A DNA stretch of 64,000 nt, from NCBI GenBank assembly GCA_902626725.1, contig CACOGI010000001.1, forward strand, positions 140,001-204,000. The letters are read 5' to 3'. Position 1 is the stretch's first letter. The number at the start of each line of letters is the position of its first letter. A program made the translations under genes and the position numbers. Below, in pieces: positions 21,752 to 42,072 of the stretch. Source of the DNA: an uncultured Pelagibacteraceae bacterium. Its GTDB lineage: Bacteria > Pseudomonadota > Alphaproteobacteria > Pelagibacterales > Pelagibacteraceae. Below the pieces are notes generated by a model, which did not search any database, was not told the origin of the DNA, and worked only from the letters and a program-made list of their open reading frames with translations.

Positions 21752-22634
21752 TTTTTTTTATTTTATTTTTTGGTAATAACATAGCAAATTCTTTTTTTAA
21801 AATTGGAACACCTTCAATGATTGGGTAGATTAAACTTGAAGTTTTTGAATATACATAATTTGAATTAATCAAATTTATTGATTTTTTTGTGATTGGCTCA
21901 ACCATAATAGGACATTTAATTTTTTTCTTATTTAGACTTATTATATAAATAGAGCTCTTATTTTTAAAACTTAAAAAATTTTTCATTGGGATCTTTTTGT
22001 ATTTAAAATTTTTTTTAATTAAAATTTTTTCTAATTTTTGCGTATAGCCATATTTTTTCATTCTCTGCTTTTGCTTAATATCTGCTAATTTATAATCAGG
22101 TTCTATTAAAACTAAACCCCTTGAACTTACTCTTGATAATTCTTTGATAATTTGTTCCTCCTCACCGTTATTTGGTTCAATTGCATGCATAGTTACTGAA
22201 ATCTCAAAAGAATTATCTTTAAAAGGTATATTTTTGAGTGTTGCACACACAAAGTTGAGATTTTTGTTCTTTAAATTAAAATATTTAATTCCAGCTAAGA
22301 TTCTATTAAAACTAAAATCCAATCCATAAACTTTAGTATTTTTGATACCTTTTTTAAGTAAATTTGTATTAGTTAATTCTCCACATCCACAGTCTAGTAA
22401 GTAGGATAATTTTCCAAAATTTTCATTGATAACCTTAATAATTTCCTCACTAAATGATCGATATGCTTGCCTTTTTTTCTCCCAATCTCTAATGTAATTT
22501 CCTGCTTGCAAATCGTATGCAAAATTAATTATTTTCGTTTTGTCTAATTTGCTAAATTTTTTAAGCGATAATTGGAAATTTGTTTTCTTTTTGGATTTGA
22601 GCTTATTAAGCAGTTTTATTAAACTATGATTCAT
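21735..22634 (-). CDS. SAM-dependent methyltransferase with C-terminal Trm112-like segment
   Basis: LLDCGCGELTNTNLLK, VYGLDFSFNRIL; C-terminus IKCPIMVEPI...SSLIYPIIEGVPILKKEFA. Confidence 0.7.
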   Translation of the reverse strand: MNHSLIKLLNKLKSKKKTNFQLSLKKFSKLDKTKIINFAYDLQAGNYIRDWEKKRQAYRSFSEEIIKVINENFGKLSYLLDCGCGELTNTNLLKKGIKNTKVYGLDFSFNRILAGIKYFNLKNKNLNFVCATLKNIPFKDNSFEISVTMHAIEPNNGEEEQIIKELSRVSSRGLVLIEPDYKLADIKQKQRMKKYGYTQKLEKILIKKNFKYKKIPMKNFLSFKNKSSIYIISLNKKKIKCPIMVEPITKKSINLINSNYVYSKTSSLIYPIIEGVPILKKEFAMLLPKNKIKKNVLLK

Positions 22635-22672
22635 TAAATGTTTAAAATTTTATATAGTAAATAGTAATTTAA

Positions 22673-24918: not shown

Positions 24919-24950
24919 AAATTATAAATGTTGAAAATAATAAACTTATA

Positions 24951-26066
24951 ATGGCAAAACAAAATAAACAATTATCAAACTTAGTAATTTTTACTCCAAA
25001 TATTGATCATGGTGGAGTAGAAAAAAATTTATTTTTACTTTCAAATTTTCTAAGCAAAAGATTTACTAATATAAGTCTAATTACATTTAATCACACTGAT
25101 AAAAAGTATTTTGATAAAAAAATTAATTTTATTACTCCAAATATTTTAGGTAATTTTAAAAACAGAATATTAAAAAATTTTGTTTGTACAATATTATTAA
25201 CAAAGTTAATTCTTTCTAGAAAAAAGACATTAATTTTATCATTTAATTCAAACTTGTATGCAACCTTTTTGGCGAAAATATTTAGAACAAAAATAATCAT
25301 TAGAATAAATGCTTCACATAAATTATGGGCAACAAATTTTTTTAAAAAAAAAATATTTGAATTTTTCTTTAAGCTACCAGATGCGGTAATTGTAAATTCA
25401 ATTGATTTAAAAAAAGAAATAGACAAAAAATTTAAAATTAATTCTAAATGTATTCTTAATCCATTAAATAAAAAAAAAATTTTAAAAATAAAAAAAAATA
25501 ATCTTAAACTTTTTAACGTCAACAGAAAAGTTTTTAAAATTCTTTTTTTGGGGAGACTTGTAGATCAAAAAGACCCTTTTACTTTTTTAGAAAGTATTAA
25601 AAGAATAGAAAAAAAATTTAAATTTAAAGCACTTATAGTTGGAAGCGGATATATGAAAAAAAATATTTTAAAATATATAAAGGAAAATTCACTTGAAAAA
25701 AAGATTAAGCAAATTGATTTTACTTCAAAAGGAATTCAATATCTAAATCAGTGTGATCTTTTTGTTCTAACATCTAAGTTTGAGGGTTTGCCAAATGTTC
25801 TATTAGAAGCTCAATTTTTAAAAAAATATATTATTTCGTCTAATTGTCCAACAGGCCCAAGAGAAATTCTTTTAGGTGGAAAAGCAGGTGATTTGATCAA
25901 GATAAACGACCCAGAATTATTCTCAAAAAAAATAATTAATTATTATTTAAATAGAAAAAATAAAATCTACAAAAGGAAAATTCAATTAGGTTTTAAAAGT
26001 TTATATAGATATGATTTTAAAACTAATTGTGAAAAATATTATAATTTAATTAACAAAACATTCTAA
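24951..26066 (+). CDS. Glycosyltransferase group 1
   Basis: ILFLGRLVDQKDPFTFLES...LTSKFEGLPNVLLEAQFLKKYIISSNCPTGPREIL. Confidence 0.9.
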   Translation: MAKQNKQLSNLVIFTPNIDHGGVEKNLFLLSNFLSKRFTNISLITFNHTDKKYFDKKINFITPNILGNFKNRILKNFVCTILLTKLILSRKKTLILSFNSNLYATFLAKIFRTKIIIRINASHKLWATNFFKKKIFEFFFKLPDAVIVNSIDLKKEIDKKFKINSKCILNPLNKKKILKIKKNNLKLFNVNRKVFKILFLGRLVDQKDPFTFLESIKRIEKKFKFKALIVGSGYMKKNILKYIKENSLEKKIKQIDFTSKGIQYLNQCDLFVLTSKFEGLPNVLLEAQFLKKYIISSNCPTGPREILLGGKAGDLIKINDPELFSKKIINYYLNRKNKIYKRKIQLGFKSLYRYDFKTNCEKYYNLINKTF

Positions 26067-26070
26067 TTTT

Positions 26071-27168
26071 ATGAAGAAAAGAAATCTTGTATTTTTTCTA
26101 CCTAATTTTGCTGCTGGAGGAGCAGGAAATTCAATTGTTAATATTTGTAAAAATCTTAATAAAAAGAAGTATAATATTTTTATTTTATCATTAAAAAAAA
26201 ACTTTTATAAACATGAATTATATAAATATTGTAAAGAAATTAGAGAAATAGATAGATCAAGCACCATATTTTCATTAAATAAAATAGACAATTACCTAAA
26301 AAAATTTGACAAAAAGAATACCTTAATAATTTCAAATATTAATTATGCAAACTCATTATTTGTACTTTATTTTAAAATATTAAAACATTTTAAGCTTATT
26401 GTAATTGAACGAACACCCTATCAAGAACTCAGTATTTACTATAATTTTATAGATTTTTACAAAAAGTTAATAATAAAAATCATAATTAAGTTCTTTTATA
26501 AATCAGCGGATGCCCTGATAGCAAACTCAAGGAAAACTGCTAATGATTACAGAAGAAAAATCAACAATAATTGTTTTTATGTTTATCCATTATCTTTTAA
26601 GTCAAAAATAAATATTAAAAAAAAAAATAAAATTAACAATCAACTAAAAATTTTAACGATTGCAAGGCTATCTAGAGAAAAAAGAATCGAGGATCAAATT
26701 TATGCTTTAAAAAAAATAGGAAATATAAAATACAAATTAACTATTGTTGGTGATGGATATTTAAAAGAATTTTTAAATAATTTAATAAGAAAATTTAATG
26801 TGAAAGCGAAAATAGTAAATTATTCGGATAAAAATAAAATTAAATATTTAAAAAAATCTAACTTATATATTTGTTCCTCAGATTTTGAGGGTTTTCCTAA
26901 TACTGTTATTGATGCGATAAATTATGGTTTACCTGTAATTTCTTCAAATAACCATGGTGGAATAAATGAAATACTATTAAATGGATATGGTGGAACTTTT
27001 TATAAAACAAGAGATATAAATGATCTCGCTAATAAAATAAAAAATGTTGATAAATATTATAAAAAAGAGCTAAAAAAGAATATAACTGCTAAAAAAAAAT
27101 TGAATAGATTTTCAGAGTTGAATATTAAAAAATATGAAAAAATATTTGATAGAGTTTTAATCAAATAA
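26071..27168 (+). CDS. Glycosyltransferase group 1
   Basis: FAAGGAGNSIVNI, LTIARLSREKRIEDQI, CSSDFEGFPNTVIDAINYGLPVISSNNHGG. Confidence 0.9.
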   Translation: MKKRNLVFFLPNFAAGGAGNSIVNICKNLNKKKYNIFILSLKKNFYKHELYKYCKEIREIDRSSTIFSLNKIDNYLKKFDKKNTLIISNINYANSLFVLYFKILKHFKLIVIERTPYQELSIYYNFIDFYKKLIIKIIIKFFYKSADALIANSRKTANDYRRKINNNCFYVYPLSFKSKINIKKKNKINNQLKILTIARLSREKRIEDQIYALKKIGNIKYKLTIVGDGYLKEFLNNLIRKFNVKAKIVNYSDKNKIKYLKKSNLYICSSDFEGFPNTVIDAINYGLPVISSNNHGGINEILLNGYGGTFYKTRDINDLANKIKNVDKYYKKELKKNITAKKKLNRFSELNIKKYEKIFDRVLIK

Positions 27169-28116
27169 ATGTTTATTATTTTTAAACCAATCAATAGTAT
27201 TTTTAATTGAAACTTCTAATTCTGTAAATTTAAAATTTTTAATTTTTTTTAAAATTTTTTTATTATTCCCATGTGTTTTGTATATATCTGCTAACTGTTT
27301 TTTTCTTCGAACCATTTTTGTTTTTGGTGTGAATTTGCCTATAAAGTTTACCACTTTTTTCAAACCAACAGGTTTATTAGAACAAATATTGTATAATTCG
27401 TGATTATTATTTTTGAGTTTTCTCAATTTTATGATTAAAGATATAACGTCTTTAATATATGTAAAATCTCTAAAATGATTTCCATTATTATTTAGATAAA
27501 ACTTCTTTTTCTTAAATGATGCATTTAGTAGTTTAAACATAAACATATCCGGTCTACCCCATTCACCGAAAACTGTAAAAAATCTAAGTCCAATCGATTT
27601 AAATTTATAAATTTCAAAAAAATTTTGAGCTATTTCTTCATTAAATTTCTTTGACAAACCATATATATTTTTAGGATAAATACTTTCCTTTTCAAGAAGA
27701 GGAAATTTTTTACTATCTCCATAAACTGAGCTAGAGGACGCATAAAAAAATTTTTTAATTTTAAAATTTTTTGCTACAGTTATTAGATTACTAAAGCCTG
27801 AAACATTAGTATCTATGTAAACTGAAGGATTTTCCATGGAATATCTTACCCCTGCTTGAGCTGCAAAATTATATACTTCATCAAATTTATAAGTTTTAAA
27901 AATTTTGATAATTTTTTCTTTTTCTAGCAAATCTATTTTGAAAAATTTGAAATTTTGATTTCTATTTAATATTTGAATCCTTTTTTTTTTTAATTTAATT
28001 GAGTAGTAATCACTATAATTATCAATACCTACTATTTTAAGATTTTTGTTTTTAGATAATTCTTTTGCAAAATTAAAAGCTATAAATCCTGCTATACCTG
28101 TGATAAGTATTTTCAT
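27157..28116 (-). CDS. NAD-dependent epimerase (UDP-glucuronate 4-epimerase-like)
   Basis: MKILITGIAGFIAFNFAKEL, YASSSSVYGDSK, FFTVFGEWGRPDMFMF. Track start 28152 appears over-extended. Confidence 0.85.
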   Translation of the reverse strand: MKILITGIAGFIAFNFAKELSKNKNLKIVGIDNYSDYYSIKLKKKRIQILNRNQNFKFFKIDLLEKEKIIKIFKTYKFDEVYNFAAQAGVRYSMENPSVYIDTNVSGFSNLITVAKNFKIKKFFYASSSSVYGDSKKFPLLEKESIYPKNIYGLSKKFNEEIAQNFFEIYKFKSIGLRFFTVFGEWGRPDMFMFKLLNASFKKKKFYLNNNGNHFRDFTYIKDVISLIIKLRKLKNNNHELYNICSNKPVGLKKVVNFIGKFTPKTKMVRRKKQLADIYKTHGNNKKILKKIKNFKFTELEVSIKNTIDWFKNNKHLFD

Positions 28117-28156
28117 TTTTGAAAATATATATATTAAATTTATACAAACCACAAAG

Positions 28157-29392
28157 ATGAATAATAAAATAAAACCTTGTGTAATTGGTCTTGGTTATGT
28201 GGGTTTGCCATTATTCCTAAGGCTTCAGACTAAGTATTTTTCTATTGGTTTTGATAATGATAAAAGTAGAATTAAGAATCTTCTTAAAAAAATTGACACA
28301 AATAAAGAATTTAAAAAACAAAATTTATTTTTAAAGAATAGGTCAATTTTTAGTTCAAATAAAAGCGTATTAAAAAAATCAAATTTTTTTATTGTTACTG
28401 TTCCAACTCCTGTTACAAAAAATAATAAACCAGACATTTCATTCCTTAAAAACGCATCAATTTTGATAGCAAAAAATTTGAAAAAAGGTGATATAATAAT
28501 CTTTGAATCTACAGTTTATCCAAGCACGACCAATTTTCTTATAAAGCATTATTTGAATAAATTTTCAAATTTAATTGAGGGGGTACATTATTTTGTTGGC
28601 TATAGCCCAGAAAGAGTAAATCCTGGTGATGGAAAGCATACAATTTCAAAAATAAAAAAAATTTTGGCTATCCCAGGAAATTCTCAGATAAAAAAAAAGG
28701 TTAAATCAGTTTACAAGCATGTATCAAAAAAATTGATTTTAACAAATTCTATTGAGTCGGCTGAAACAGCAAAAGTCATTGAGAATATTCAAAGAGACTT
28801 AAATATTGCATTTATAAATGAAATATTACTTTTTACAGATAAAATGAAATATAATTTTAATGAAATTTTAAGACTGGCATCATCTAAATGGAATTTTTTA
28901 AATTTTAAACCAGGTTTGGTAGGAGGACATTGTTTGCCAGTGGATCCACATTATTTAAATTACATAGCTCGATTAAATAAAATGAAACTAAGAACTCTTA
29001 TAGCAGGAAGAGATGTAAATAATTCTATGCAAAAATTTGTTTCAAGAAAGATTGAGGAAAAAATTATACTAATCCGAAAAGAAAAAAAAATCGAACCAAA
29101 AGTTTTAATATGTGGACTTACATATAAAAAGAATGTTTCAGATGTACGAAATTCTTTATCTTTGAAAATTTTTGTTAATTTAAGAAAAAAATATAAAAAT
29201 ATTTTTGGTTACGATAACGTCTGTGAGGATAAAATTTCATCGAAATTTAAGATCCAAAGAAATATTGAAATGATAAAAGATAGCTTTGATTTAGTTGTTT
29301 TTTTAGTTGATCACAAAAAGAATAAATCGTTATATGATTATTTTAAAAGACAAAAAAAAATTATTATAGATCCCTTGAAACTTTATAAATAA
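28157..29392 (+). CDS. Nucleotide sugar dehydrogenase (TviB/WbpA/WbpO-like)
   Basis: CVIGLGYVGLPLFLRL, VPTPVTKNNKPDISF, ESTVYPSTT, GYSPERVNPGD, KPGLVGGHCLPVDPHYL. Track start 28046 is upstream of the motif start. Confidence 0.93.
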   Translation: MNNKIKPCVIGLGYVGLPLFLRLQTKYFSIGFDNDKSRIKNLLKKIDTNKEFKKQNLFLKNRSIFSSNKSVLKKSNFFIVTVPTPVTKNNKPDISFLKNASILIAKNLKKGDIIIFESTVYPSTTNFLIKHYLNKFSNLIEGVHYFVGYSPERVNPGDGKHTISKIKKILAIPGNSQIKKKVKSVYKHVSKKLILTNSIESAETAKVIENIQRDLNIAFINEILLFTDKMKYNFNEILRLASSKWNFLNFKPGLVGGHCLPVDPHYLNYIARLNKMKLRTLIAGRDVNNSMQKFVSRKIEEKIILIRKEKKIEPKVLICGLTYKKNVSDVRNSLSLKIFVNLRKKYKNIFGYDNVCEDKISSKFKIQRNIEMIKDSFDLVVFLVDHKKNKSLYDYFKRQKKIIIDPLKLYK

Positions 29393-30148
29393 GTGAAAAT
29401 AAATAAAAAACCTTTTTTCTCAATCATAACTGTTACTAGAAATAGTGAAAAATTTATTGAAAGAAATATTAGAAGCTTAAAAAATCAAACCTTCAAAAAT
29501 TTTGAGCATATTATAATTGATGGTGACTCAAAAGACAGAACATCACAAATAATAAAAAAATATAGAGAGAATGTTGATTATTTTATCTCAAAAAAAGATA
29601 AAAATATGTGGCAAGCAATAAATAAGGGTATAAGAGTTGCCAAAGGTGAAGTTATAGGAATTCTAAATTCAGATGATATTTTTTATAAAGATGGATTGAA
29701 AATAGCAAGAAAGTACTTTGTCAATCAACGTTTAGATTGTTTGTTTGCTTCTGTCCAGAAAACAAAAGTTCATCATGGTTTTGATTTAAGTAAAATTAAT
29801 TATAAATTTAATATATTTCCATCTCATTCAGTAGGGTTTTTTTTAAAAAAAAAAATTTATGATAAAATTGGGATGTATGACGATAATCTAAAATATTGTG
29901 CAGATTATGACCTGATATATAGATTATCTAAAAAAAATTTTAAAATTGGAAAAACCTCTAAAAGAGAAATTGTCGGAAAATTTTACCCAGGAGGTATTTC
30001 CGAAAATTTAAACTTTGTTTCAAATATGTTTTATCAGTCAAAAGTAAGAATTAAGAATAAACAAAATATATTTTATGTAATTTCTTTATCAATATTAACT
30101 ATTATTTATAAATACTTATTAAATATATTTAGATTTAAAAAAAATTAA
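29393..30148 (+). CDS. Glycosyltransferase family 2
   Basis: GTG start; FFSIITVTRNSEKFIERNIRSLKNQTFKNFEHIIIDGDSKDRT, LNSDDIFYKDG. Confidence 0.92.
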   Translation: MKINKKPFFSIITVTRNSEKFIERNIRSLKNQTFKNFEHIIIDGDSKDRTSQIIKKYRENVDYFISKKDKNMWQAINKGIRVAKGEVIGILNSDDIFYKDGLKIARKYFVNQRLDCLFASVQKTKVHHGFDLSKINYKFNIFPSHSVGFFLKKKIYDKIGMYDDNLKYCADYDLIYRLSKKNFKIGKTSKREIVGKFYPGGISENLNFVSNMFYQSKVRIKNKQNIFYVISLSILTIIYKYLLNIFRFKKN

Positions 30149-30167
30149 TTATAAACTATAAAACAAT

Positions 30168-30812
30168 ATGTCGATTCAGAGTTTTTTAGAGAACAAAATT
30201 AAGCACAATCGATATCTTGTAAAAAAATTAAAAAATCTAGCTAAATATTTTGGTTTTAATTTAGAGTATTGGCATAGATATGCATCTTATAAATTGATTA
30301 AAAAAGATATAAGTTTTTTAGAATTTGAAAATTTAGATGTTTTAGAAATTTCAGCTGGAGAATATTGGAAAGAAAATTATAAGTTTAAATCTTTTGATCA
30401 AATGAATTTTCCAGAGCATGATATATGTAAAAATGCTTATGGTGAAAAAAAATATGATCTGATCATAGCAGACAATGTTTGGGAACACTTAAAATATCCT
30501 TACAGAGCTACAAAAAATGTTTTTAACATGCTAAAGGAAGATGGATATTTTTTAGTTATTACACCTTTTCTGATAAGGGTTCACGAAGTTCCAATAGATT
30601 GTACAAGATGGACAGAGGATGGATTGAAGTATTTTTTAAATGAAAATGGATTTAATTTAGACAAAATTTTTACTAATTCTTGGGGAAACAAAAAATGTGC
30701 CAAATCAGATATTAGAGAAGATTCAACATGGACAAGAATTGGTATTTATAAAGACATGACTAATAATAAAACTTTTCCACTTCAAGTTTGGGCTTTAGCT
30801 AAAAAAAATTGA
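30168..30812 (+). CDS. SAM-dependent methyltransferase
   Basis: VLEISAGEYWKENY...LIIADNVWEHLKYPYRATKNVFNMLKEDGYFLVITPF. Confidence 0.8.
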   Translation: MSIQSFLENKIKHNRYLVKKLKNLAKYFGFNLEYWHRYASYKLIKKDISFLEFENLDVLEISAGEYWKENYKFKSFDQMNFPEHDICKNAYGEKKYDLIIADNVWEHLKYPYRATKNVFNMLKEDGYFLVITPFLIRVHEVPIDCTRWTEDGLKYFLNENGFNLDKIFTNSWGNKKCAKSDIREDSTWTRIGIYKDMTNNKTFPLQVWALAKKN

Positions 30813-31579
30813 TGGAAAAGAATAAAAAGTTAATTTCAATTATTATTCCATATTATAAAAAAAAATTTTTTATTTCTAAAACAATTAAATCTATATTAAA
30901 TCAATCTCATAAAAATTTTGAGATTATAATTATTTATGATGACAATGATAAGTCAGAATTAAATTATTTAAAAAAAATAGTAAGAGGTGATAAAAGATTT
31001 AAAATTTTGATTAATAAAAAAAATTTAGGTGTATCAAAATCGAGAAATAAAGGAATAAAAAAAAGTAAAGGTAAATACATTGCATTTATTGATAGTGACG
31101 ATATATGGAAAAAAGAAAAGTTGAAGATACAGCTTCGATTTATGGAAAAAAATAATTATATGATTTCACACACTAATTACGAAATTATTAATAAGATTGA
31201 TAAATTGATAGGTTGCATGCCTATTAAAAAATCACTTGATTACAATGATTTAATTTACTCCTGTGATATTGGTTTATCTACTGTGATGATAAATAGTAAA
31301 ATAAAATCTATAATAAAATTCCCTGACATAACCACTAAAGAAGATTATATATTGTGGTTAAGTCTTTCAAAAAAGTTCAAAATATATGGGATTCAAAAAA
31401 ATCTTACTTTATGGAGAAAAGGCGATACGTCCTTTAAATATATTATTAGAAAATTTAAAGATGCCTTTTCAGTTTATTCAAAGTACGAAAAATTCAATTT
31501 TCTAAAATCAATATTTTTTGTTTTACTTCTGTCAATTAACTTTTTAAAAAAAAGCATAATTCAAAAACTAAATAGATGA
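30809..31579 (+). CDS. Glycosyltransferase family 2
   Basis: ISIIIPYYKKKFFISKTIKSILNQSHKNFEIIIIYD, AFIDSDDIW. Confidence 0.92.
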   Translation: MMEKNKKLISIIIPYYKKKFFISKTIKSILNQSHKNFEIIIIYDDNDKSELNYLKKIVRGDKRFKILINKKNLGVSKSRNKGIKKSKGKYIAFIDSDDIWKKEKLKIQLRFMEKNNYMISHTNYEIINKIDKLIGCMPIKKSLDYNDLIYSCDIGLSTVMINSKIKSIIKFPDITTKEDYILWLSLSKKFKIYGIQKNLTLWRKGDTSFKYIIRKFKDAFSVYSKYEKFNFLKSIFFVLLLSINFLKKSIIQKLNR

Positions 31580-32592
31580 TTAACTTCTTATCTTTTTTTG
31601 TTATTCATTTTTTTATAAATAAAATTTGTTTAAAAACAAATTGCTTAATTGATAAAAAGGATACATCTGATCATAAGAAAAAAATAACAACTGAGGATAA
31701 AACACCTTTATCTGGAGGCCTTGTTTTTATTATATTTTTTTCTTTTGTTATCCCTCATGAAAATTATATATTATTAACATCTTTAGTCCTACTTTATTTC
31801 ATAGGAATACTTTCAGATATAAATTATCTTTCATCCCCCTCTAAAAGAATAATTCTTCAGAGTTTGTTAGTTTTGAGTTTTATATTAACCAGCGATCTTA
31901 CAATCAAAACACTTTCAGTAGATATACTAGATAAATTATTAGATTTTAAGGTTATAAAAATTTTATTTATCTTAGCTTGTTTTTTAGTTTTGATTAATGG
32001 TTTCAATTTTTTGGATGGTATCAATACGTTAGTAGTAGGTAATTTTTTAATATGTTTATTATCAATCTATTATGTTTCAATCGAATTTGATCTTTCTTTA
32101 AATTTTAATATTATAGAAAAATTAATAATCATTTTATCAATAATTTTCATATTTAATTTTTTTGGAAAATCTTTTTTAGGTGATTCAGGAACATACTCAA
32201 TAAGTCTCCTTATCGGTTTTATTTGTATAAATTTTGTTTATATAAATAATCCTGTCGTATCACCATATTTTATTGCATCTTTATTATGGTACCCTGCAAT
32301 AGAAAATTTATTTTCAATCATAAGAAGATATTTTTCTAAAAGTAAAATTTCAAAAGCAGATAATAATCATTTACATCATTATTTGTATTTAAGTTTAAAA
32401 AAGACAAGATTTTTAGAAAATCATTTATTTTTAAATACATTTACAGGTTTACTGGTAAATATTTATATGATTTTGTCGGCTTATATTTCGTTAATAAATT
32501 TTAGCCACACTAAAACATTATTAATAATTATATTATTTAATATATGTCTATATTTAATTATTTATTTTTTAATAGATAAAAAAACTCTTTAA
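31576..32592 (+). CDS. MraY/WecA-like undecaprenyl-phosphate sugar-1-phosphate transferase
   Basis: TPLSGGLVFI, GFNFLDGINTLVVG, FLGDSGTYSISLLIGF and multiple TM segments. Confidence 0.85.
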   Translation: MINFLSFFVIHFFINKICLKTNCLIDKKDTSDHKKKITTEDKTPLSGGLVFIIFFSFVIPHENYILLTSLVLLYFIGILSDINYLSSPSKRIILQSLLVLSFILTSDLTIKTLSVDILDKLLDFKVIKILFILACFLVLINGFNFLDGINTLVVGNFLICLLSIYYVSIEFDLSLNFNIIEKLIIILSIIFIFNFFGKSFLGDSGTYSISLLIGFICINFVYINNPVVSPYFIASLLWYPAIENLFSIIRRYFSKSKISKADNNHLHHYLYLSLKKTRFLENHLFLNTFTGLLVNIYMILSAYISLINFSHTKTLLIIILFNICLYLIIYFLIDKKTL

Positions 32593-32615
32593 GCTAAAAA
32601 AAAATTCAAATTAAT

Positions 32616-33290
32616 TTAATTTTTTTTCCAAAAAAATAATTTTATCATAGAAAGTAAAATTAAAAATCCATCTTTAAAAGCATTTACTTTTTTTTTACCA
32701 CCAATTCTTTTTCTTTCATAAGAGTTTGTGGAGATAATTTTAAGACCAAATTTTTTTGCTTTAATTGGTAGTTCTACACAAAAACCAAAATCTTTTTGAC
32801 TTAATTCTAAATTTTTAGTTTTTTCTGTGTTACCTAAAACAAAAGTGTAAAGGATATCAGAGATAGGTAATAAAAAAAAAATTTTTCCAAAAAAAGAAAA
32901 AACTTTATTACCTATAAAAGTTATTATTGTATCGTCTTCACTTCCAGCATTTTTTTCATACCTGCTTCCAAACACTAAATCATTATGATTTATCTCAGCC
33001 AGGGTTAACATTTTTTCTAATTCTGCGGGGTTGAATGAGCCGTCAGCATTAAAAATACAAAAATATTTTGAGGTCACATTATGAATTCCTTCTATAAGAG
33101 CATTTCCATAGCCACGATGCGACTGGTAAATTAATTTGCAATTGAAATTTTGGATAGCCTCTATGGTTTCGGTGTCCTCTTTTTCCAAAATGACAAAGAT
33201 TTTTAAGTTGAATTTATCCAATTCTTTTAAAACACTTGGGAGAGATTCTTTCTCATTTTTGGCGGGTATTATTAGTGTAAGATTATCCAT
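32616..33290 (-). CDS. GT2 glycosyltransferase, DPM1-like
   Basis: LTLIIPAKNEKESLPSVLKEL, RGYGNALIEGI, FNADGSFNP, VFGSRYEKNAGSEDD. Confidence 0.85.
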   Translation of the reverse strand: MDNLTLIIPAKNEKESLPSVLKELDKFNLKIFVILEKEDTETIEAIQNFNCKLIYQSHRGYGNALIEGIHNVTSKYFCIFNADGSFNPAELEKMLTLAEINHNDLVFGSRYEKNAGSEDDTIITFIGNKVFSFFGKIFFLLPISDILYTFVLGNTEKTKNLELSQKDFGFCVELPIKAKKFGLKIISTNSYERKRIGGKKKVNAFKDGFLILLSMIKLFFWKKN

Positions 33291-33387
33291 AAATTATAGA
33301 ATTATTTGATACAATTTTTGTGTATAAATATTATAAACCTTTAACAACTATTTTTTAAATATCAAATTATAATTATAATAAAATATC

Positions 33388-35064
33388 ATGAATTTAATAA
33401 TCTTTTTAACTTCATACTTTATAATAATTTTATCTATATTTGGTTATAGTTTAGCATTGCACGATATTTTAAAAAAAAAAATTAATTTAGAATTTGAGTT
33501 TAATTTTCTTGGTAGCATATTTTTTTTAATTTTTTTATCTTTTCTTACACATTTATTTTTCAAACATAATTTTTTGCACAATCTTGTTATTTTATTTGCT
33601 GGTATATCGTTATTTCTATTTTTCTTTAAAAAATATAAAAAATTAGTGAAAGACTATTCTAAGATTTTATCTTTAATTTTTATTATATTAATTCTAGCAC
33701 TATTATCGGCTAAAACACATGATGACTTTCCTTATTACCATTTTCCCTACACTTTTTATTTAACTCAAGAAAATCTGATAATTGGCATAGGAAATTTAAA
33801 TCATGGATTTAGAACTCTTTCATCAATTTTTTATTTAAACTCATTATTTTATTTACCGCTAATAGAATACTTTTCATTCAATATTGGACAAATATTATTG
33901 TTAGGTGCCTCGAATTTAATTTTAATTTTTAAATTAAAAAATGATTTTAAATATAAAAGATATGATTATATATTTTTATTAACACTTTTATCATTTTTAT
34001 TTATAAATTCATTTTTCTATAGATTATCCGAACATGGCACTGATCGTACTGCACAAATTTTAATTCTAATCTTATTTGTTGAAATATTGAATTTATTTAG
34101 AGAAAATATTGTATTAAAAATTTTTTTTTCCAAAGTATTTATTTTGCTTGGAATTATAATATCTTTAAAAGCATTTTATGTACTTTACCTCATAATTCTA
34201 ATTCCAATTTTTTATATTATCTTAAATAAAAATCTCAAAAATTTATTTAATGACTTATTTGGTAATTTTTATTTTTATATTTTTTTATCAGTCGGGCTTT
34301 TTCTTATGATGAATAATATTTTTAATTCTGGTTGTATTTTATATCCAGTGAGCTTTACATGTATCTCTCAATTCGATTGGTCACTTTATAAAGAAGCACA
34401 ACAAATGAATAACTGGTATGAACAATGGTCCAAAGCAGGTGCTACTCCAAATTTTCGTGTAGAGGACCCTGAGAATTATATAAAGGGTTTTAATTGGGTT
34501 AATAATTGGATCGAACTTTATTTTTTTAATAAAGTAACTGACTTTTTACTAGGTGTTTTGCTTTTAATTATTATTGTTTTTGCAATTTTATATTCCAAAA
34601 AAAGAAATAATTTAAAGATAGATAAAAAGGTTTGGATTGTTTATTCAATTTTAATATTTCTATTTTTTGAGTGGTTTTATAATCATCCTAGCTTGAGATA
34701 TGGGGGTTATAGTTTAATAGTTTTAATTACACTCATTCCTTTTAGTATATATTTTTCAAGATATATCTCAAAAAAGAATTTAAAGAAAAAAGTTGTTTTT
34801 TTAATATTATTATCTTTAGTTATATTCTCAGGCAGAAATTTAAATAGAATTTACAATGAAATTCATAAATATGATTATCAATTCATTTTAAATCCTACTT
34901 ATAAAGTAGATGATAATCATTTTAGAATAGATATTCTTATTCAAGATTTGAAAAAACATCATGAAAATTGCAATAAAGATACTTTGACTTTTTGTAAAGA
35001 TTACAAAGGAATATATATAAATAGGAAATTTTCTTATTATTATTTAATGAAAAAAAATGATTAA
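33388..35064 (+). CDS. Multi-pass membrane protein, possible GT-C glycosyltransferase or polymerase
   Basis: ~10 or more hydrophobic segments; early loop KTHDDFPYYHFPY; flanked by DPM1-like GT2. Confidence 0.5.
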   Translation: MNLIIFLTSYFIIILSIFGYSLALHDILKKKINLEFEFNFLGSIFFLIFLSFLTHLFFKHNFLHNLVILFAGISLFLFFFKKYKKLVKDYSKILSLIFIILILALLSAKTHDDFPYYHFPYTFYLTQENLIIGIGNLNHGFRTLSSIFYLNSLFYLPLIEYFSFNIGQILLLGASNLILIFKLKNDFKYKRYDYIFLLTLLSFLFINSFFYRLSEHGTDRTAQILILILFVEILNLFRENIVLKIFFSKVFILLGIIISLKAFYVLYLIILIPIFYIILNKNLKNLFNDLFGNFYFYIFLSVGLFLMMNNIFNSGCILYPVSFTCISQFDWSLYKEAQQMNNWYEQWSKAGATPNFRVEDPENYIKGFNWVNNWIELYFFNKVTDFLLGVLLLIIIVFAILYSKKRNNLKIDKKVWIVYSILIFLFFEWFYNHPSLRYGGYSLIVLITLIPFSIYFSRYISKKNLKKKVVFLILLSLVIFSGRNLNRIYNEIHKYDYQFILNPTYKVDDNHFRIDILIQDLKKHHENCNKDTLTFCKDYKGIYINRKFSYYYLMKKND

Positions 35065-35785
35065 TTTTTTCGCAACACATTTATTGGGTTTTTTTGATTT
35101 TTTTCATAAAAAAAAGATTATTAAAAAGTTAAAAAATATCATTAATCAAACAATTCTTGAAAATGTATTCGATATTGGTGGTCATAAAGGTGAAACCCTT
35201 GATTTATTATTAAAAAATTTTGAAATAAATAATATTTATTCTTTTGAACCGTCAAATTTAAGTTTTGAAATTCTTTCACAAAAATCAATATTGCTAAAAA
35301 AAAAATATAGTAAGACAAATATTTTTTTAGAAAATGCTGCCGTAGGAGAGACAAGTAAAAATATTGATTTTAATTTTCTAAATGAAACATCTTCTTCGAC
35401 AATAAAATCATTAAATATTGACTCTAAATATTATAAAAAAAAGGAAAATTTTTTTGGAAAATTAGTTAATAAGAAAATTAAAATCAAACAAATTGAATTT
35501 AATGAATATCTCAGTCAAAAAGATATTAAAAAAATCGATTTATTAAAAATTGATACTGAAGGTTATGAGTTTGAAGTTTTAAAAGGGTTAAAAGAACAGA
35601 TATCTAACATTTCAATAATTCTTTTTGAACATCATTATGACAATATGATCATCAAAAATTACACTTTTAGTGATATACATAAACTTCTAGTTAATAAAAG
35701 TTTTGAGCGCGTCTTTAAAATTAAAATGCCATTTAGAAAAAGTTTTGAGTATATTTATGTAAAAAAATTAAGTAAAAAGATTTAA
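35057..35785 (+). CDS. FkbM family methyltransferase
   Basis: [50 protein letters not shown]. Confidence 0.85.
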
Positions 35786-35787
35786 AG

Positions 35788-36822
35788 ATGAAAAATAAAA
35801 TAGCTTTAATTTTTGGCGTAACTGGACAAGATGGGTCATATCTAGCTGAAATATTATTAAAAAAAAAATACGTCGTTCATGGTGTAAAAAGAAGATCATC
35901 TAGTATAAATACTTTTAGAGTAGACCATATTTATCAAGATCCACATGAAAAAAATTATAGGTTTCGATTACATTACGGTGACATAACTGACTCTTCCTCA
36001 GTTTCAAGTATAATAAAAAAAGTTAAGCCAGACGAAATATATAATTTAGCTGCACAATCACATGTTGCGGTTTCATTCGAAGTTCCAGAATATACCGCAA
36101 ATGCTGATGCCCTAGGTGCTTTAAGAATACTTGAGGCAATAAAGTTTCACAAACTTGAAAAGAAAACAAAATTTTACCAGGCCGGAACATCAGAAATGTA
36201 TGGAAAGGTTCAATCAAAACCACAAAATGAAAAGACTCCATTTTATCCTCTAAGCCCTTATGGTGTTGCAAAATTATATGCTCATTGGATAGTTAAAAAC
36301 TATCGTGAGGCATATAGAATATACGCATGTAATGGAATTTTATTTAATCACGAAAGTCCGAGGCGTGGTGAAACATTTGTTACAAAAAAAATAATTGCAG
36401 CATTGTGTAAAATAAAAGAAAAAAAACAGAAAAAATTATTTTTAGGAAATCTTAATGCAAAAAGAGACTGGGGCCATGCAAGAGATTATTGCTATGCAAT
36501 GTGGAAAATTTTACAACAAAAAAAGCCAGATGATTATGTTATTGCTACAGGCAAACAGTATTCAATTAAAGAATTCATTAATCTAACAGCAAAAAAATTA
36601 GATTTAAAAATAAAATGGAGAGGAAAGGGGCTTAAAGAAAAAGCATACGACAGCAAAGGGTTTCCAATAATTGAATGTGATAAAAATTACTTTAGGCCAT
36701 TGGATGTAAATACTTTATTAGGAGATGCCAAAAAGGCACGAAATAAACTTAAATGGAAACCTACTGAAAATGTTAGTTCTTTGATAGATGAAATGATTGA
36801 AGCTGAATATCAGAATTTCTAA
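35788..36822 (+). CDS. gmd: GDP-mannose 4,6-dehydratase
   Basis: [78 protein letters not shown]. Confidence 0.97.
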
Positions 36823-37757
36823 TGGGATTAAAAAAAAATACAAAAATTTTTTTAGCAGGTCACAATGGTATGGTTGGATCTGCAATTTTAAAAAAATTAC
36901 GTGAAAGTGGTTTTAAAAATGTTATCTTAAGAAGTCGAAAACAATTAAATCTTTTAAATCAATCTAAAACACTAGCCTTCTTAAAAAAGAATAAACCAAA
37001 GTATGTTATTATAGCAGCAGCTAGAGTTGGTGGGATAGTAGCTAATATTAATTTTAAAAGTCAATTTCTATATGAGAATTTACAAATTCAAAATAACTTA
37101 ATACATGGTTCATACTTAGCTGGTGTAAAAAATTTATTTTTGTTAGGATCAAGTTGTATTTATCCAAAACATTGCAAACAACCAATGAAAGAAGATTACT
37201 TATTGAGTGGAAAGTTAGAGGAAAGTAATGATGCTTATGCACTTGCAAAAATAGCAGGGGTCAAAATGTGTGAATATTACAGTAAAATTTATAATTTAAA
37301 TTTTAAAAGTTTAATGCCACCAAATTTATATGGTCCAAATGATAATTATGATCTTAATAATTCACATTTTTATCCTGCACTTATAAAAAAAATTCATAAC
37401 GCAAAAGTAAAAAATAAAAAAAAATTAACAATTTGGGGAACAGGAAAAGCTAAAAGGGAGTTAATGTTTGTTGATAACTTTGCTGATGCGGTAATTTTTT
37501 TTATGAATAAAAAGATAAAAGAACCGTTTTTAAATATCGGAACTGGCAAGGATTACATGATAAAATGGTATGCGAAATTTATAATGAAAAAGCTTAACGT
37601 AAATCTTAAGATCGTTTATGACAAATCAAAACCCGATGGCATGCCTAAAAAATGTTTAAACATTGATAAAGCAAAAAAATATGGCTGGAAACCAAGTAAT
37701 AATTTTCATGAAGCTTTCAAAATAACTTACCGTAATTTTTTAGAAAAAATTAAATAA
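36822..37757 (+). CDS. fcl: GDP-L-fucose synthase
   Basis: FLAGHNGMVGSAI, AAARVGGIVANI, GSSCIYPKHCKQPMKEDYLLSGKLE, YALAKIAG. Confidence 0.95.
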   Translation: MGLKKNTKIFLAGHNGMVGSAILKKLRESGFKNVILRSRKQLNLLNQSKTLAFLKKNKPKYVIIAAARVGGIVANINFKSQFLYENLQIQNNLIHGSYLAGVKNLFLLGSSCIYPKHCKQPMKEDYLLSGKLEESNDAYALAKIAGVKMCEYYSKIYNLNFKSLMPPNLYGPNDNYDLNNSHFYPALIKKIHNAKVKNKKKLTIWGTGKAKRELMFVDNFADAVIFFMNKKIKEPFLNIGTGKDYMIKWYAKFIMKKLNVNLKIVYDKSKPDGMPKKCLNIDKAKKYGWKPSNNFHEAFKITYRNFLEKIK

Positions 37758-38994
37758 AAGTCCTTCCAAAATTTATAAGCAACAGAAAAAGATAAAACGA
37801 ATAAATATTTTTTACTAACTGTGAATTGATAATTTTTTCTATTTGAAAGTTAAAATTAAAGAATAAAAAAAATAGAATTATAAGAAGTGGATCAAAATAT
37901 TTATGATATATCGAAAATTGTGGATTAGAAATAATCAAAACAAAAAATAGCAAGACATTGTTAAAATCTAATTTAAAAATATTTGTAATAAATAGAAATG
38001 ATAAAAATGTAATACAAAAAAATAAGTATGAATTATCAAATAAGAGATAAGAAATTTTAAAGAAAATTCCACCTCCGGTGTAATTAATCGAATAATCGAA
38101 AAAATATAATAATAAAAAAAATATGACAGTTGAAAAATATAAGTGTTTTATTTTAAAATTTTTTTTAAAAAAAGTTACTGATAGTTGATTATAAATGAAT
38201 GGTAGCATGTAAAAGAATATTAAAGTCGATATTATAAATATTTTATTTGATGGATTTAGTCCATCAATAGCACTTAAATGACTTACTACTTTTATAGAGA
38301 GAAAATTTATGTCAAAATAAAATAAATATATAATCATTGGTAGGGACAAGAAGATATTCATTAGAAAAATAGCTATTAGCTTTTGGGAAATATTAAAAAT
38401 TTTGAAATAGTAGAAAAAATAATATAAGAAAAAAACTGAAAAGTTAGGACTAAAATATGCAGAGAGTACAAGAAATAAATTACTATAAATACAATTTTTA
38501 TAGCTATGATTTTTTTTAAAATTTAAAAAAAAGTAAATTGAAAATACGAATATCAATAAACCAATTAACCTACTATCCGGCCAAATTGCTGTAGATCTAA
38601 TTGAAGGTGAAATAAAAAAAACACAGCAAATTAAAAAGATAATTTTTTTATCAATATTAGGAAATTTTAATATTAGGCATTTATAAATCATTAAAATTAA
38701 TAATGGCAAAATATTTAAGTGAATAAATCTAATTACATCTATTTCGATTCCTAAAACACTTAAAAAAGATAGAAGCATCATTAAAAGTGGTGAGTGTCTG
38801 TCACCAAAATCGTTATAACTTAAAAATGTTGCTATAAAATCGTTTTTAAAACTTTCAATGAGTTTGATTCTTAAGATTGTAAAATCATCATATGCACCTC
38901 CAGAGGTGTTCTCTCCAAAATAAAAACCAATTAACAAAGAAAAATAAAGTACTAAAGCAATTAATGTTTTATTTGTGTTATCTGAAAGATGCAT
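37750..38994 (-). CDS. Multi-pass membrane protein, GT-C-like
   Basis: Many hydrophobic helices; early loop GGAYDDFTILRI...FGDRHSPLL; family not firmly identified. Confidence 0.45.
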   Translation of the reverse strand: MHLSDNTNKTLIALVLYFSLLIGFYFGENTSGGAYDDFTILRIKLIESFKNDFIATFLSYNDFGDRHSPLLMMLLSFLSVLGIEIDVIRFIHLNILPLLILMIYKCLILKFPNIDKKIIFLICCVFFISPSIRSTAIWPDSRLIGLLIFVFSIYFFLNFKKNHSYKNCIYSNLFLVLSAYFSPNFSVFFLYYFFYYFKIFNISQKLIAIFLMNIFLSLPMIIYLFYFDINFLSIKVVSHLSAIDGLNPSNKIFIISTLIFFYMLPFIYNQLSVTFFKKNFKIKHLYFSTVIFFLLLYFFDYSINYTGGGIFFKISYLLFDNSYLFFCITFLSFLFITNIFKLDFNNVLLFFVLIISNPQFSIYHKYFDPLLIILFFLFFNFNFQIEKIINSQLVKNIYSFYLFLLLINFGRTFI

Positions 38995-39031
38995 GTAAGT
39001 AATAATAATAGTTAATTACGAAAATCTTTAA

Positions 39032-40267
39032 ATGAAGTCAAAAAAAAAATTTTTACACAATATTTTGCTACCAAAAAAAGAAAATTATTTTTATCCATTA
39101 TCAGACGATAATCTAAGCAAAGATGACTTAAATGCTGGTATTAAAGTTTTAAAATCTAAGAAAATTACAATGGGTGACCAAACTAGTTTATTTGAAAAAA
39201 TTTTTGCAAAAAAATTTAATTCCCAATATGCTTTAATGGTTAACTCAGGTTCATCAGCAAACTTACTGTCAGTGTTTGCATCATGTAACCCAATGAGAAA
39301 AAATAGATTCAAGAGAGGAGACCATGCGATAATTCAATCGTTGTGTTGGCCAACTTCTTTGTGGCCATTAGTTCAGGCAGGATTAAAAATAAATTTTGTA
39401 GATGTCGATCCGAAAACTTTAAATGTAAGAGCTGATGAGGTTATTAATATGATTACAAAAAAAACAAAAGTTATTTTAATAATCAATGTTTTGGGATTAT
39501 CTACTGATATTAAAAAAATAAGAAGATTTTGTAATTTAAAGAAAATAATTTTGATAGAAGATAATTGTGAAGCTCTTGGAGCAAAATTTGATAAAAAATA
39601 TTTAGGAACTTTTGGAGATTTTTCAACTTTCTCCTTTTTTTATTCACATCAAATAACGTCTGGAGAAGGTGGCATGATAATGTGTAAAAATAAAGAAGAT
39701 TTCGAAATTCTTAAATCTTTAAGGTCGCATGGTTGGTCTAGAGATAAAAAAATTGCAAACAAATATCCAAACTTAGACCCAAGATACATTTTTATTAACT
39801 CTGGCTTTAATTTGAGGCCAACTGATATTCAAGCTGCAATTGGGATAAGTCAATTTCAAAAATTAGAAAAATTTAAAAAAACAAGAGTTGATAATAGAAA
39901 TAGAATTATTAAAAGTCTCAAAAGTAACCCTAAGTGGAATGATCAATTTTATTTTATAAAAGTTCCAAAAAAAACTTTACCTAGCTATATGGTTCTACCT
40001 ATTATGATGAATTCTTTTTATGCTAATAAGAAAAAAGAATTTATAAATTATATTGAGTCTAAAGGTCTTCAAACAAGACCAATTATAAGTGGTAATTTTA
40101 CAAAACAACCTTCATCAAAATTATATAAATTAAATAAAGCAAAAAAATTTCCTGGTGCTGACGAAGTACAAAAACTTGGATTTGTCATTGGTCTTCCATC
40201 AAAGAAAATTGAAAAAAAAAAAATTGATTTTATTACTAAAGTTCTTTTATCTATTGATACTTTTTAG
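39032..40267 (+). CDS. DegT-fold ColD/RfbH-like dehydratase (GDP-4-keto-6-deoxymannose 3-dehydratase-like)
   Basis: ALMVNSGSSANLLSVF, LIEDNCEALGAKF, SFFYSHQITSGEGG (His in place of PLP Lys), RPIISGNF; strong resemblance to ColD motifs from memory. Confidence 0.82.
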   Translation: MKSKKKFLHNILLPKKENYFYPLSDDNLSKDDLNAGIKVLKSKKITMGDQTSLFEKIFAKKFNSQYALMVNSGSSANLLSVFASCNPMRKNRFKRGDHAIIQSLCWPTSLWPLVQAGLKINFVDVDPKTLNVRADEVINMITKKTKVILIINVLGLSTDIKKIRRFCNLKKIILIEDNCEALGAKFDKKYLGTFGDFSTFSFFYSHQITSGEGGMIMCKNKEDFEILKSLRSHGWSRDKKIANKYPNLDPRYIFINSGFNLRPTDIQAAIGISQFQKLEKFKKTRVDNRNRIIKSLKSNPKWNDQFYFIKVPKKTLPSYMVLPIMMNSFYANKKKEFINYIESKGLQTRPIISGNFTKQPSSKLYKLNKAKKFPGADEVQKLGFVIGLPSKKIEKKKIDFITKVLLSIDTF

Positions 40268-40930
40268 ATATTGACTAAAAAAATAAATTAATATTTTTAG
40301 TCCATCTGTAAAAGCTTTAACTTTTTTTTTATCCGCAAATCTTTTTCGTTCAACACACGGTAGTGTTGCATATTTCAATTTTGATAATTTAGCTTTAAAA
40401 GGTATTTCAACACATAAGCAATAATCATTAGAATTCAGTTTCATATTTTTTAAACTGTCAGTTTTTGCAAAAATATAAGTAAAAAGTAAATCTGAAATTT
40501 TTAAGCGCATAAAAATATTTCCAAGTAAGGTGAACCCAAAATTTCCAATTCTTGTTATTAAATCATCATCATAACTGTGTGCACTCTTTTCATATCTTGA
40601 TCCAAAGATTAAATCCAATTTTTCATTCACAAGTTTCTCTTTCATTTGATAGATATATTTTGGATCTGTAGATCCGTCTGCATAGAAGATACAAGAGTAT
40701 TTTGTTTTTACACGATTAATTCCTTCAACTATTGCATTACCGTATCCTCTCTTAGATTGAAATAATACATCACAATCATAATCGTTAGTTGCTTTAAAAG
40801 TATCTTCGTCTTCTTCTCGAATTACTACTAAGATTTTTACAGATAGTTGCATCTTTTTAATTTCATTTAAAACCATTGGAAGCGCATTAGGCTCATTCTT
40901 TGCGGGTATTATTAGTGTAATTTCTTCCAT
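40247..40930 (-). CDS. GT2 glycosyltransferase, DPM1-like (paralog of 32616..33290)
   Basis: ITLIIPAKNEPNALPMVLNEI, RGYGNAIVEGI, FYADGSTDP, IFGSRYEKSAHSYDD. Confidence 0.85.
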   Translation of the reverse strand: MEEITLIIPAKNEPNALPMVLNEIKKMQLSVKILVVIREEDEDTFKATNDYDCDVLFQSKRGYGNAIVEGINRVKTKYSCIFYADGSTDPKYIYQMKEKLVNEKLDLIFGSRYEKSAHSYDDDLITRIGNFGFTLLGNIFMRLKISDLLFTYIFAKTDSLKNMKLNSNDYCLCVEIPFKAKLSKLKYATLPCVERKRFADKKKVKAFTDGLKILIYFFSQYLKSINR

Positions 40931-41011
40931 TAGATTTATGCTAGATTAATTAAAATTAATAATTTTACTAATTATTTACAATTATTATATATTTGTATAA
41001 ACAATTTTGAA

Positions 41012-41902
41012 ATGAAAAAAATATTAGTTGTTACAGGTGGCGCTGGTTTTGTGGGTTCTAATTTAATAGAATTTTTAATTAAAAAAACAAATTTTAAAGT
41101 GATCAGCTTAGACGATTATTCATCAGGAACAAAAAAAAATCATTTAAGACATAAAAGAGTTAAGTATTTAAGAGGACATACAAAAGATATCAATAAAATT
41201 CTAAATAAATTTAGTTCAAAAATTAATACGATTTTTCATTTTGGAGAATTTTCAAGAATATATGAGAGCTTTAATCAGATGAACAATTGTATTCAGTCAA
41301 ATACCATTGGTACCAATGCAGTATTTAACTTTTGTTTAAAAAACAAAATTAAACTTATTTACTCAGCAACATCCGCCACTTTAGGAAACAAAGGTAAAGA
41401 TAAAAACTTATCCCCATACGCTTTTACAAAGTCAAAAAATATAGAATTCTTAGAAAATTTAAAAAAATGGTTTAATTTTAGATATGATGTAATTTTTTTT
41501 TACAATGTTTATGGCCCAAGACAAATTTGCAAAGGAAGAATGGCCACTGTAATTGGTATTTTTGAAGATTTTTATTTGAGAAAAAAAGCCTTACCGGTTG
41601 TAAGACCTGGGAGCCAAACAAGACGATTCACTCACATACAGGATACAATTGAAATATGCTATAAAGCTTGGAGGAAGAATAAGTGTAAATACTATAGTAT
41701 TTCGAGTAGGGAAAGCTTTTCTATTTTAAATGTTGCTAAATTATTTGAATCAAAAATAAAACTTTTACCTAAAAGAAAAGGTGAGAGGTATGCGTCAGCC
41801 CTAACTAGTATGAGTTTATCTAACAAAGTTTATAAAAATTTCGGCAAGATTAGATTAAGAAACTACATAGCAAATTTCCTTAAAAACAATAAAAAAAAGT
41901 AA
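41012..41902 (+). CDS. NAD-dependent epimerase/dehydratase (extended SDR)
   Basis: ILVVTGGAGFVGSNLIEFLI, SATSATLG, YAFTK, YNVYGPRQ, RRFTHIQDT. Confidence 0.88.
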   Translation: MKKILVVTGGAGFVGSNLIEFLIKKTNFKVISLDDYSSGTKKNHLRHKRVKYLRGHTKDINKILNKFSSKINTIFHFGEFSRIYESFNQMNNCIQSNTIGTNAVFNFCLKNKIKLIYSATSATLGNKGKDKNLSPYAFTKSKNIEFLENLKKWFNFRYDVIFFYNVYGPRQICKGRMATVIGIFEDFYLRKKALPVVRPGSQTRRFTHIQDTIEICYKAWRKNKCKYYSISSRESFSILNVAKLFESKIKLLPKRKGERYASALTSMSLSNKVYKNFGKIRLRNYIANFLKNNKKK

Positions 41903-41923
41903 AATATTACTTACAAAAGGTAG

Positions 41924-41951
41924 TTTACATTTAATTTGATTTAGGTATAAC
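41924..41951 (+). promoter_or_regulatory. Putative sigma70-type promoter for the detached 5S rRNA gene
   Basis: TTTACA (41924-41929), 16-nt spacer, TATAAC (41946-41951), ending ~5 nt upstream of the inferred 5S 5' end. Confidence 0.5.
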
Positions 41952-41956
41952 TCTAG

Positions 41957-42072
41957 CGCCGGTGATTATTGCGAAAGTGTTATACCCGATCCCATTCCGA
42001 ACTCGGAAGTCAAGCCTTTCTGCGCTGATGGTACTTTGTCTTAAGATATGGGAGAGTAAGTCGTCGCCGGCT
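41957..42072 (+). rRNA. rrf: 5S ribosomal RNA
   Basis: Conserved core CCCGATCCCATTCCGAACTCGGAAGTCAAG; terminal helix GCCGG (41958-41962)/CCGGC (42067-42071). Confidence 0.95.

What the first reader, a model, noticed from the sequence alone, without database searches (positions are those of the whole stretch)
39032..40267. ColD-like dehydratase with His in place of the catalytic PLP lysine, close to gmd/fcl
Seen: SFFYSHQITSGEGG aligns with FSLHPVKSITTGEGG of the window's own aminotransferase (15850..17010), placing His at the PLP-lysine position. Known: this substitution marks ColD (GDP-colitose pathway) and RfbH/E1 dehydratases. With Gmd at 35788 supplying GDP-4-keto-6-deoxymannose and an SDR at 41012, the island may make a 3,6-dideoxyhexose such as colitose. 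The SDR's role is inference.
Basis: partly seen in the sequence, partly recalled or inferred. Interest (0 to 1): 0.68.

Follow-up and report, generated by a model that had tools for sequence, protein, structure and literature searches.

The report
ColD-like sugar dehydratase in SAR11 island
A very common ocean bacterium (SAR11) carries, in its most variable surface-sugar gene island, an enzyme related to the one that removes an oxygen to make rare 3,6-dideoxy sugars such as colitose; the enzyme family is known, but this SAR11 branch has its own active-site signature and its exact final sugar is not settled.

Summary
ORF 39032-40267 encodes a 411-aa sugar enzyme whose best solved relative is ColD (E 8e-68, about 33-35% identity). 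His206 sits exactly at ColD His188, the PLP-lysine position, and the other active-site invariants are kept; the [2Fe-2S] cysteines of RfbH/E1 are absent. It is not a ColD orthologue: it belongs to a separate, strongly supported 55-member clade found almost only in SAR11, marked by Gln where ColD has His189 (54 of 55). The gene lies at the 5S-rRNA end of SAR11 hypervariable region HVR2. Most likely it is an Fe-S-independent, PMP-dependent GDP-4-keto-6-deoxymannose 3-dehydratase fed by the Gmd at 35788. The likelier 4-keto-reductase is the adjacent Fcl homologue (36822), by phylogeny a GDP-fucose synthase, not ColC. Elsewhere in the clade a small SDR ("c2") takes that place. A polyprenyl-type GT2 and a GT-C-fold membrane protein flank the gene, suggesting transfer through a lipid carrier. 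L-colitose is plausible but unproven. Verdict: new variant of a known kind, moderate interest.

The parts
39032..40267 (+). ColD-like PMP-dependent nucleotide-sugar 3-dehydratase (411 aa)
   Evidence: best PDB match ColD by sequence and by predicted fold (pLDDT 93.6, pTM 0.91)
39647..39649 (+). codon of His206, equivalent of ColD His188 (PLP-lysine position)
39650..39652 (+). codon of Gln207, signature of the SAR11 clade (His189 in ColD)
   Evidence: Q in 54 of 55 clade members, H in 31 of 31 ColD-clade members
35788..36822 (+). gmd, GDP-mannose 4,6-dehydratase; likely source of the substrate
   Evidence: TIGR01472 531.7 bits over cut-off 415
36822..37757 (+). fcl, GDP-L-fucose synthase family epimerase/reductase; best candidate for the step after the dehydratase
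   Evidence: K-12 Fcl S107, C109, Y136, K140, H179 kept; nests in SAR11 Fcl clade, not ColC clade; within 3 genes of the ColD-like gene in 7 of 8 close relatives
37750..38994 (-). membrane protein with GT-C-like fold, candidate polyprenyl-phosphate-sugar dependent glycosyltransferase
   Evidence: first 25 Foldseek matches all GT-C enzymes or relatives (STT3, PIG-M/U, PimE, PglB, PMT, ALG9), best E 4.6e-3, probability 1.00; no Pfam/NCBIfam match
40247..40930 (-). GT2 glycosyltransferase of polyprenyl-phosphate type, convergent with and overlapping the dehydratase gene by 21 bp
   Evidence: same place in relatives L073, L033, L034, L035
41012..41902 (+). extended SDR, near-core SAR11 gene; not a ColC homologue and not specifically linked to the dehydratase
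286..41957 (.). HVR2 surface-polysaccharide island, bounded by 23S rRNA 3' end (1-285) and 5S rRNA (41958-42072)
   Evidence: described for HTCC1062 in PMC2217521

Best explanation
P0001 is an Fe-S-independent, vitamin-B6 dependent GDP-4-keto-6-deoxy-D-mannose 3-dehydratase that works like ColD. Gmd makes GDP-4-keto-6-deoxymannose from GDP-mannose (family-level assignment). P0001 in its PMP form makes a Schiff base with C4; His206 removes the proton and the C3 hydroxyl leaves; hydrolysis gives GDP-4-keto-3,6-dideoxymannose and PLP, and glutamate restores PMP (inferred from ColD). A 4-keto-reductase finishes the sugar. In this locus the only candidate that is homologous to ColC and physically linked is the Fcl at 36822, which would give GDP-L-colitose if it accepts the 3-deoxy substrate (inference). 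The flanking GT2 and GT-C proteins would put the sugar on a polyprenyl phosphate and move it to a surface glycan (inference from family and fold). Shown: homology, catalytic residues, predicted fold, linkage. Inferred: all activities and the end product. The confidence given is for the 3-dehydratase function on the Gmd product; for L-colitose as end product I put about 0.45.
For: ColD is the best PDB match by sequence and by fold (E1 next). ColD-clade invariants S57, W88, D159, S183, S187, H188, H215, R250 and R331 are all kept. Where RfbH-type enzymes have the cysteine motif RDxxxDCYCxPG...C, P0001 has RSHGWSRD without cysteines, as in ColD. A Gmd-family gene is within 3 genes in 20 of 55 clade members (24 of 30 in the ColD clade), in 5 of 8 of the window's subclade, and a Gmd-family protein occurs in most carrier genomes. 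An Fcl homologue is within 3 genes in 7 of 8 close relatives against 2 of 47 elsewhere in the clade (Fisher p 1e-6; relatedness not corrected). In E. coli O55 the colC and colD genes are adjacent and ColC is an Fcl homologue.
Against: P0001 lies outside the ColD clade and carries a clade-specific Gln207, so chemistry or substrate may differ. The window Fcl is a fucose synthase by phylogeny: the tree that holds it with ColC is rejected (AU p 0.010), and it is not of ColC type at seven of eight ColC-distinguishing positions. Its close relatives occur in genomes without any such dehydratase. Some carriers show no Gmd at E 1e-60, for example G032, 99% complete. No activity has been measured.
Confidence: 0.78

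Rival explanations
1. Same 3-dehydratase, but the end product is another 3,6-dideoxyhexose: a reductase other than Fcl, encoded elsewhere in the unassembled third of this genome, reduces the 4-keto group without C5 epimerisation, giving a D-series sugar such as GDP-3,6-dideoxy-D-mannose, while gmd-fcl makes GDP-L-fucose on its own. (This rival shares the dehydratase function with the best explanation; its confidence is for the product.)
For: In other subclades a ~270 aa SDR (c2) is the immediate neighbour of the dehydratase in 24 of 47, and c2 co-occurs with it across genomes (22 of 30 c2 genomes carry it; Fisher p 8e-16, relatedness not corrected). In five carrier genomes fcl sits beside the SDR of the 41012 family, away from the dehydratase; in four of these c2 is next to the dehydratase. 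The window Fcl is a fucose synthase by phylogeny.
Against: No c2-family hit at E 1e-20 in the own genome (only weak hits around 1e-14), but the genome is only 66% complete. In the window's own subclade c2 is never adjacent and fcl nearly always is.
Confidence: 0.35
2. It is an RfbH/E1-type CDP-sugar 3-dehydrase with a [2Fe-2S] cluster and a separate reductase.
For: The closest NCBIfam model is RfbH (263.6 bits), and E1 is the second PDB family.
Against: Score is far below the RfbH cut-off of 423; cluster cysteines absent; ColD scores better in sequence and fold; NCBIfam scans of the island show no CDP-glucose 4,6-dehydratase above cut-off.
Confidence: 0.02
3. It is an ordinary sugar aminotransferase (for example perosamine synthase) in spite of the His.
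For: Same fold superfamily; Pfam DegT/DnrJ/EryC1.
Against: His at the lysine position in every homologue of the clade, so no internal aldimine can form; the clade lies with the His dehydratases.
Confidence: 0.04
4. The clade has changed chemistry (the Gln207 signature plus the C105 and C218 replacements mark a different substrate or a different elimination), or is not active.
For: Fixed or nearly fixed differences from the ColD clade: H189Q, S87C, T200C, V34T, T91S, E15D; carriers without Gmd.
Against: All other ColD-clade invariants kept over 55 diverse members; model confidence high; recurrent linkage with Gmd and SDRs.
Confidence: 0.16

Closest known systems
ColD, GDP-4-keto-6-deoxy-D-mannose 3-dehydratase (E. 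coli O55, PDB 2GMS, 3B8X, 3GR9)
   Same: Fold, catalytic His, the ColD-clade invariants, no Fe-S cluster motif, gmd and an Fcl-family gene nearby
   Different: 33-35% identity; separate clade (AU p 7e-72 against joining); Gln for His189 and other fixed differences; N-terminal extension of about 17 residues; an Fcl-type rather than ColC-type neighbour
RfbH / E1, CDP-4-keto-6-deoxyglucose 3-dehydrase (PDB 3BCX)
   Same: His at the lysine position, PMP chemistry, GEGG loop
   Different: No [2Fe-2S] cysteines; His-Gly-Trp instead of Asp-Trp-Gly at the ColD His215 loop; GDP-sugar genes as neighbours
ColC, GDP-L-colitose synthase (E. coli O55, L184:5850-6773)
   Same: Window Fcl is its homologue (38%) with the same catalytic residues
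   Different: Window Fcl nests in a SAR11 GDP-fucose synthase clade; the SDR at 41012 belongs to neither family
SAR11 hypervariable region 2 (PMC2217521)
   Same: Surface-sugar genes between 23S and 5S rRNA
   Different: The parts of that paper read here name no 3-dehydratase or colitose pathway; carriers of this clade are a minority of SAR11-order genomes (41 of 297)

Membership tests
ColD (GDP-4-keto-6-deoxymannose 3-dehydratase) | His in place of the PLP lysine | tested here: met
ColD (GDP-4-keto-6-deoxymannose 3-dehydratase) | No [2Fe-2S] cysteine motif | tested here: met
ColD (GDP-4-keto-6-deoxymannose 3-dehydratase) | Invariant active-site residues of the ColD clade | tested here: met
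   exception is His189, replaced by Gln207
ColD (GDP-4-keto-6-deoxymannose 3-dehydratase) | Falls inside the ColD clade | tested here: not met
   the clade as a whole may be sister to ColD (AU p 0.42)
ColD (GDP-4-keto-6-deoxymannose 3-dehydratase) | 3-dehydration of GDP-4-keto-6-deoxymannose | not testable with these tools
   needs enzyme assay
RfbH / E1 | Four [2Fe-2S] cysteines | tested here: not met
RfbH / E1 | NCBIfam RfbH cut-off (423 bits) | tested here: not met
   263.6 bits
ColC (window SDR 41012-41902) | Fcl/ColC-type epimerase-reductase family | tested here: not met
   other SDR family, near-core in SAR11
ColC (window fcl 36822-37757) | Falls inside the ColC clade | tested here: not met
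   (AU p 0.010)
GDP-L-fucose synthase (window fcl 36822-37757) | Catalytic Ser107, Cys109, Tyr136, Lys140, His179 (K-12 numbering; roles from general knowledge) | tested here: met
   NCBIfam 387.6 bits is under the strict cut-off of 500
GT-C glycosyltransferase (37750-38994) | GT-C fold | tested here: inconclusive
   top 25 matches all GT-C enzymes or relatives, but best E only 4.6e-3 and model pLDDT 76

The most novel reading that the evidence does not exclude
SAR11 has its own family of Fe-S-free 3-dehydratases (His-Gln signature) that acts as a common hub: swapping the neighbouring reductase (Fcl type here, c2 SDR elsewhere) would yield different GDP-3,6-dideoxyhexoses, some perhaps not yet described as GDP sugars, which linked GT2 and GT-C enzymes transfer through a polyprenyl phosphate carrier to the surface glycan encoded by HVR2.
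Probability: 0.3. Interest if true: 0.6.

Novelty: new variant of a known kind. Interest (0 to 1): 0.42.

Why it matters
3,6-Dideoxyhexoses are best known as strongly antigenic O-antigen sugars of enteric bacteria. Finding a lineage-specific branch of their key enzyme in many SAR11 genomes, in the region thought to shape phage and grazer recognition, gives a concrete, testable chemistry for SAR11 surface variation. The fixed His-to-Gln change next to the catalytic His also offers a natural probe of how these enzymes steer between dehydration and transamination.

Tried and rejected
The ColD/E1 papers PMC2533848 and PMC2782820 are not held, so ColD residue roles rest on deposited mutants and the review PMC8987622. 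A search for colitose with SAR11 found no paper. The SDR at 41012 as ColC was rejected. Fcl as a true ColC was rejected by phylogeny, though not as a functional stand-in. The neighbouring Gmd-like 326-aa protein of L046/L103 was considered as a GDP-6-deoxymannose reductase but is a Gmd paralogue. Phage origin was not supported: phage relatives are about 30-33% identical. The family TIGR01479 (mannose-1-phosphate guanylyltransferase/isomerase) was not found in the own genome, inconclusive at 66% completeness.

Full report
What was checked. The ORF at 39032-40267 (+) is real: 411 aa, ATG, stop at the stated end. phmmer against all PDB chains puts ColD first (2GMS, E 7.6e-68), E1/RfbH next (3BCX, 2e-48), and lysine aminotransferases well behind. 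Because ColD entries 2R0T and 3GR9 carry Lys, and 3B8X Asn, at position 188, the register is certain: P0001 His206 is ColD His188.

Kind of enzyme. An AlphaFold2 model (pLDDT 93.6, pTM 0.91) finds ColD entries at the top of the PDB by fold, then E1, then Lys aminotransferases. Over an alignment with 55 P0001-clade and 31 ColD-clade proteins, S57, W88, D159, S183, S187, H188, H215, R250 and R331 (ColD numbering) are shared. RfbH-type relatives in SAR11 and Bdellovibrionales show the cysteine motif RDxxxDCYCEPG...C at the place where P0001 has RSHGWSRD; P0001 has cysteines only at 85, 105, 167, 179 and 218. By the review PMC8987622 the Fe-S-free ColD branch releases its product by hydrolysis, without a reductase to regenerate the cofactor. 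The mechanism for P0001 is inferred from this.

Not ColD itself. A tree of 113 proteins places P0001 in a clade of 55 (SH-aLRT 100), all from Pelagibacterales except one contig binned as Parcubacteria (L082, G+C 0.289, possibly mis-binned); the ColD clade of 31, which holds E. coli O55 ColD and also some SAR11 proteins, is separate. Forcing P0001 into the ColD clade is rejected (AU p 7e-72), but the two clades may be sisters (p 0.42). The clade has Gln after the catalytic His in 54 of 55 members, where all 31 ColD-clade members have His, plus S87C, T200C, V34T, T91S and E15D.

Surroundings. The window begins in the 3' end of 23S rRNA (1-285) and has 5S rRNA at 41958-42072. The stretch between is therefore HVR2, the surface-sugar island described for HTCC1062 (PMC2217521). 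It holds nonulosonate-type genes, glycosyltransferases, a nucleotide-sugar dehydrogenase, and near the 5S end gmd, fcl, a membrane protein, the ColD-like gene, a GT2 and an SDR.

Which reductase. The SDR at 41012 is found in 171 of 297 genomes of the order. In 28 genomes it lies within 260 bp of fcl, and 23 of those carry no P0001-clade gene; in the five others the dehydratase is elsewhere. So gmd-fcl-SDR looks like a standing SAR11 arrangement into which the piece 37750-40930 has been placed in this genome. The window Fcl belongs to a SAR11 Fcl clade of 36 (SH-aLRT 99), mostly from loci without this dehydratase; the ColC clade of 14 (100) is apart, and holding the focal Fcls with ColC is rejected (AU p 0.010). 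At seven of eight ColC-distinguishing positions the window Fcl is not ColC-like, with catalytic residues common to both. Yet in the window's subclade of 8, fcl is within three genes in 7, against 2 of 47 in the rest (p 1e-6), while in the rest a ~270 aa SDR, c2, is the direct neighbour in 24 of 47, and 0 of 8 here. Across genomes c2 tracks the dehydratase (22 of 30 c2 genomes; Fisher p 8e-16), while fcl and the 41012 SDR do so only weakly (p 0.04 and 0.05). These tests ignore shared ancestry. The simplest reading is a partner swap: Fcl type here, c2 elsewhere.

Where the sugar may go. The GT2 at 40247-40930 resembles polyprenyl-phosphate glycosyltransferases (AglJ and PpgS models, below cut-off). 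The membrane protein at 37750-38994 has no family match, but its model (pLDDT 76) matches GT-C enzymes and relatives in all of the first 25 Foldseek hits (best E 4.6e-3). In L052 and L104 the order GT-C, dehydratase, c2, GT2 recurs with c2 in the reductase place. A lipid-carrier route is thus suggested, not shown.

Substrate. Gmd at 35788 passes its curated cut-off, and Gmd-family genes are common near clade members (20 of 55 within three genes) and in carrier genomes. A minority of carriers, such as G032 (99% complete), show none at E 1e-60, so other substrates cannot be excluded.

Conclusion. Observation confirmed; the dehydratase reading stands (0.78); the SDR assignment falls; colitose is plausible (about 0.45) through the adjacent Fcl. 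New variant of a known kind.

Noticed in passing
window 1-285 and 41958-42072: The island lies between the 3' end of 23S rRNA and 5S rRNA, so most of the window is SAR11 HVR2; a pntA sRNA (RF01810) is at 42217-42278.
   Followed up: yes
window 12067-17010: NeuB-like, PseG-like and PseC-like genes plus a radical SAM protein: a probable nonulosonic acid pathway, all below NCBIfam cut-offs.
   Followed up: partly
window 32616-35064: A second GT2 / large membrane protein pair (LIC_10190 family, above cut-off), divergent, resembling the pair around the dehydratase.
   Followed up: no
L073:5732-6963: In the nearest relative (80% identical dehydratase) the GT-C-like gene is split into two ORFs.
   Followed up: no
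L111 and L072:6800-9177: L111 has two ColD-like genes close together; L072 has a His-type dehydratase directly followed by a Lys-type aminotransferase.
   Followed up: no
L103:6014-9198 and L046:8558-9538: A shorter Gmd paralogue (326 aa) lies directly upstream of the dehydratase, in L103 with a true gmd downstream.
   Followed up: partly
L116, L131, L133, L134: Archaeal ColD-like relatives (Nitrosopelagicus, Natronorubrum, Heimdallarchaeum, Thorarchaeota) group outside the ColD and SAR11 clades.
   Followed up: no
phage records: Many cyanophages carry relatives of about 30% identity, one annotated as CDP-4-dehydro-6-deoxyglucose 3-dehydratase.
   Followed up: no
genome G032 (locus L052): Carries the dehydratase and c2 in a 99% complete genome with no Gmd hit at E 1e-60, so the substrate there is unclear.
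   Followed up: no
L082: A contig binned as Parcubacteria carries a SAR11-type copy (49% identity, G+C 0.289); probably mis-binned.
   Followed up: partly
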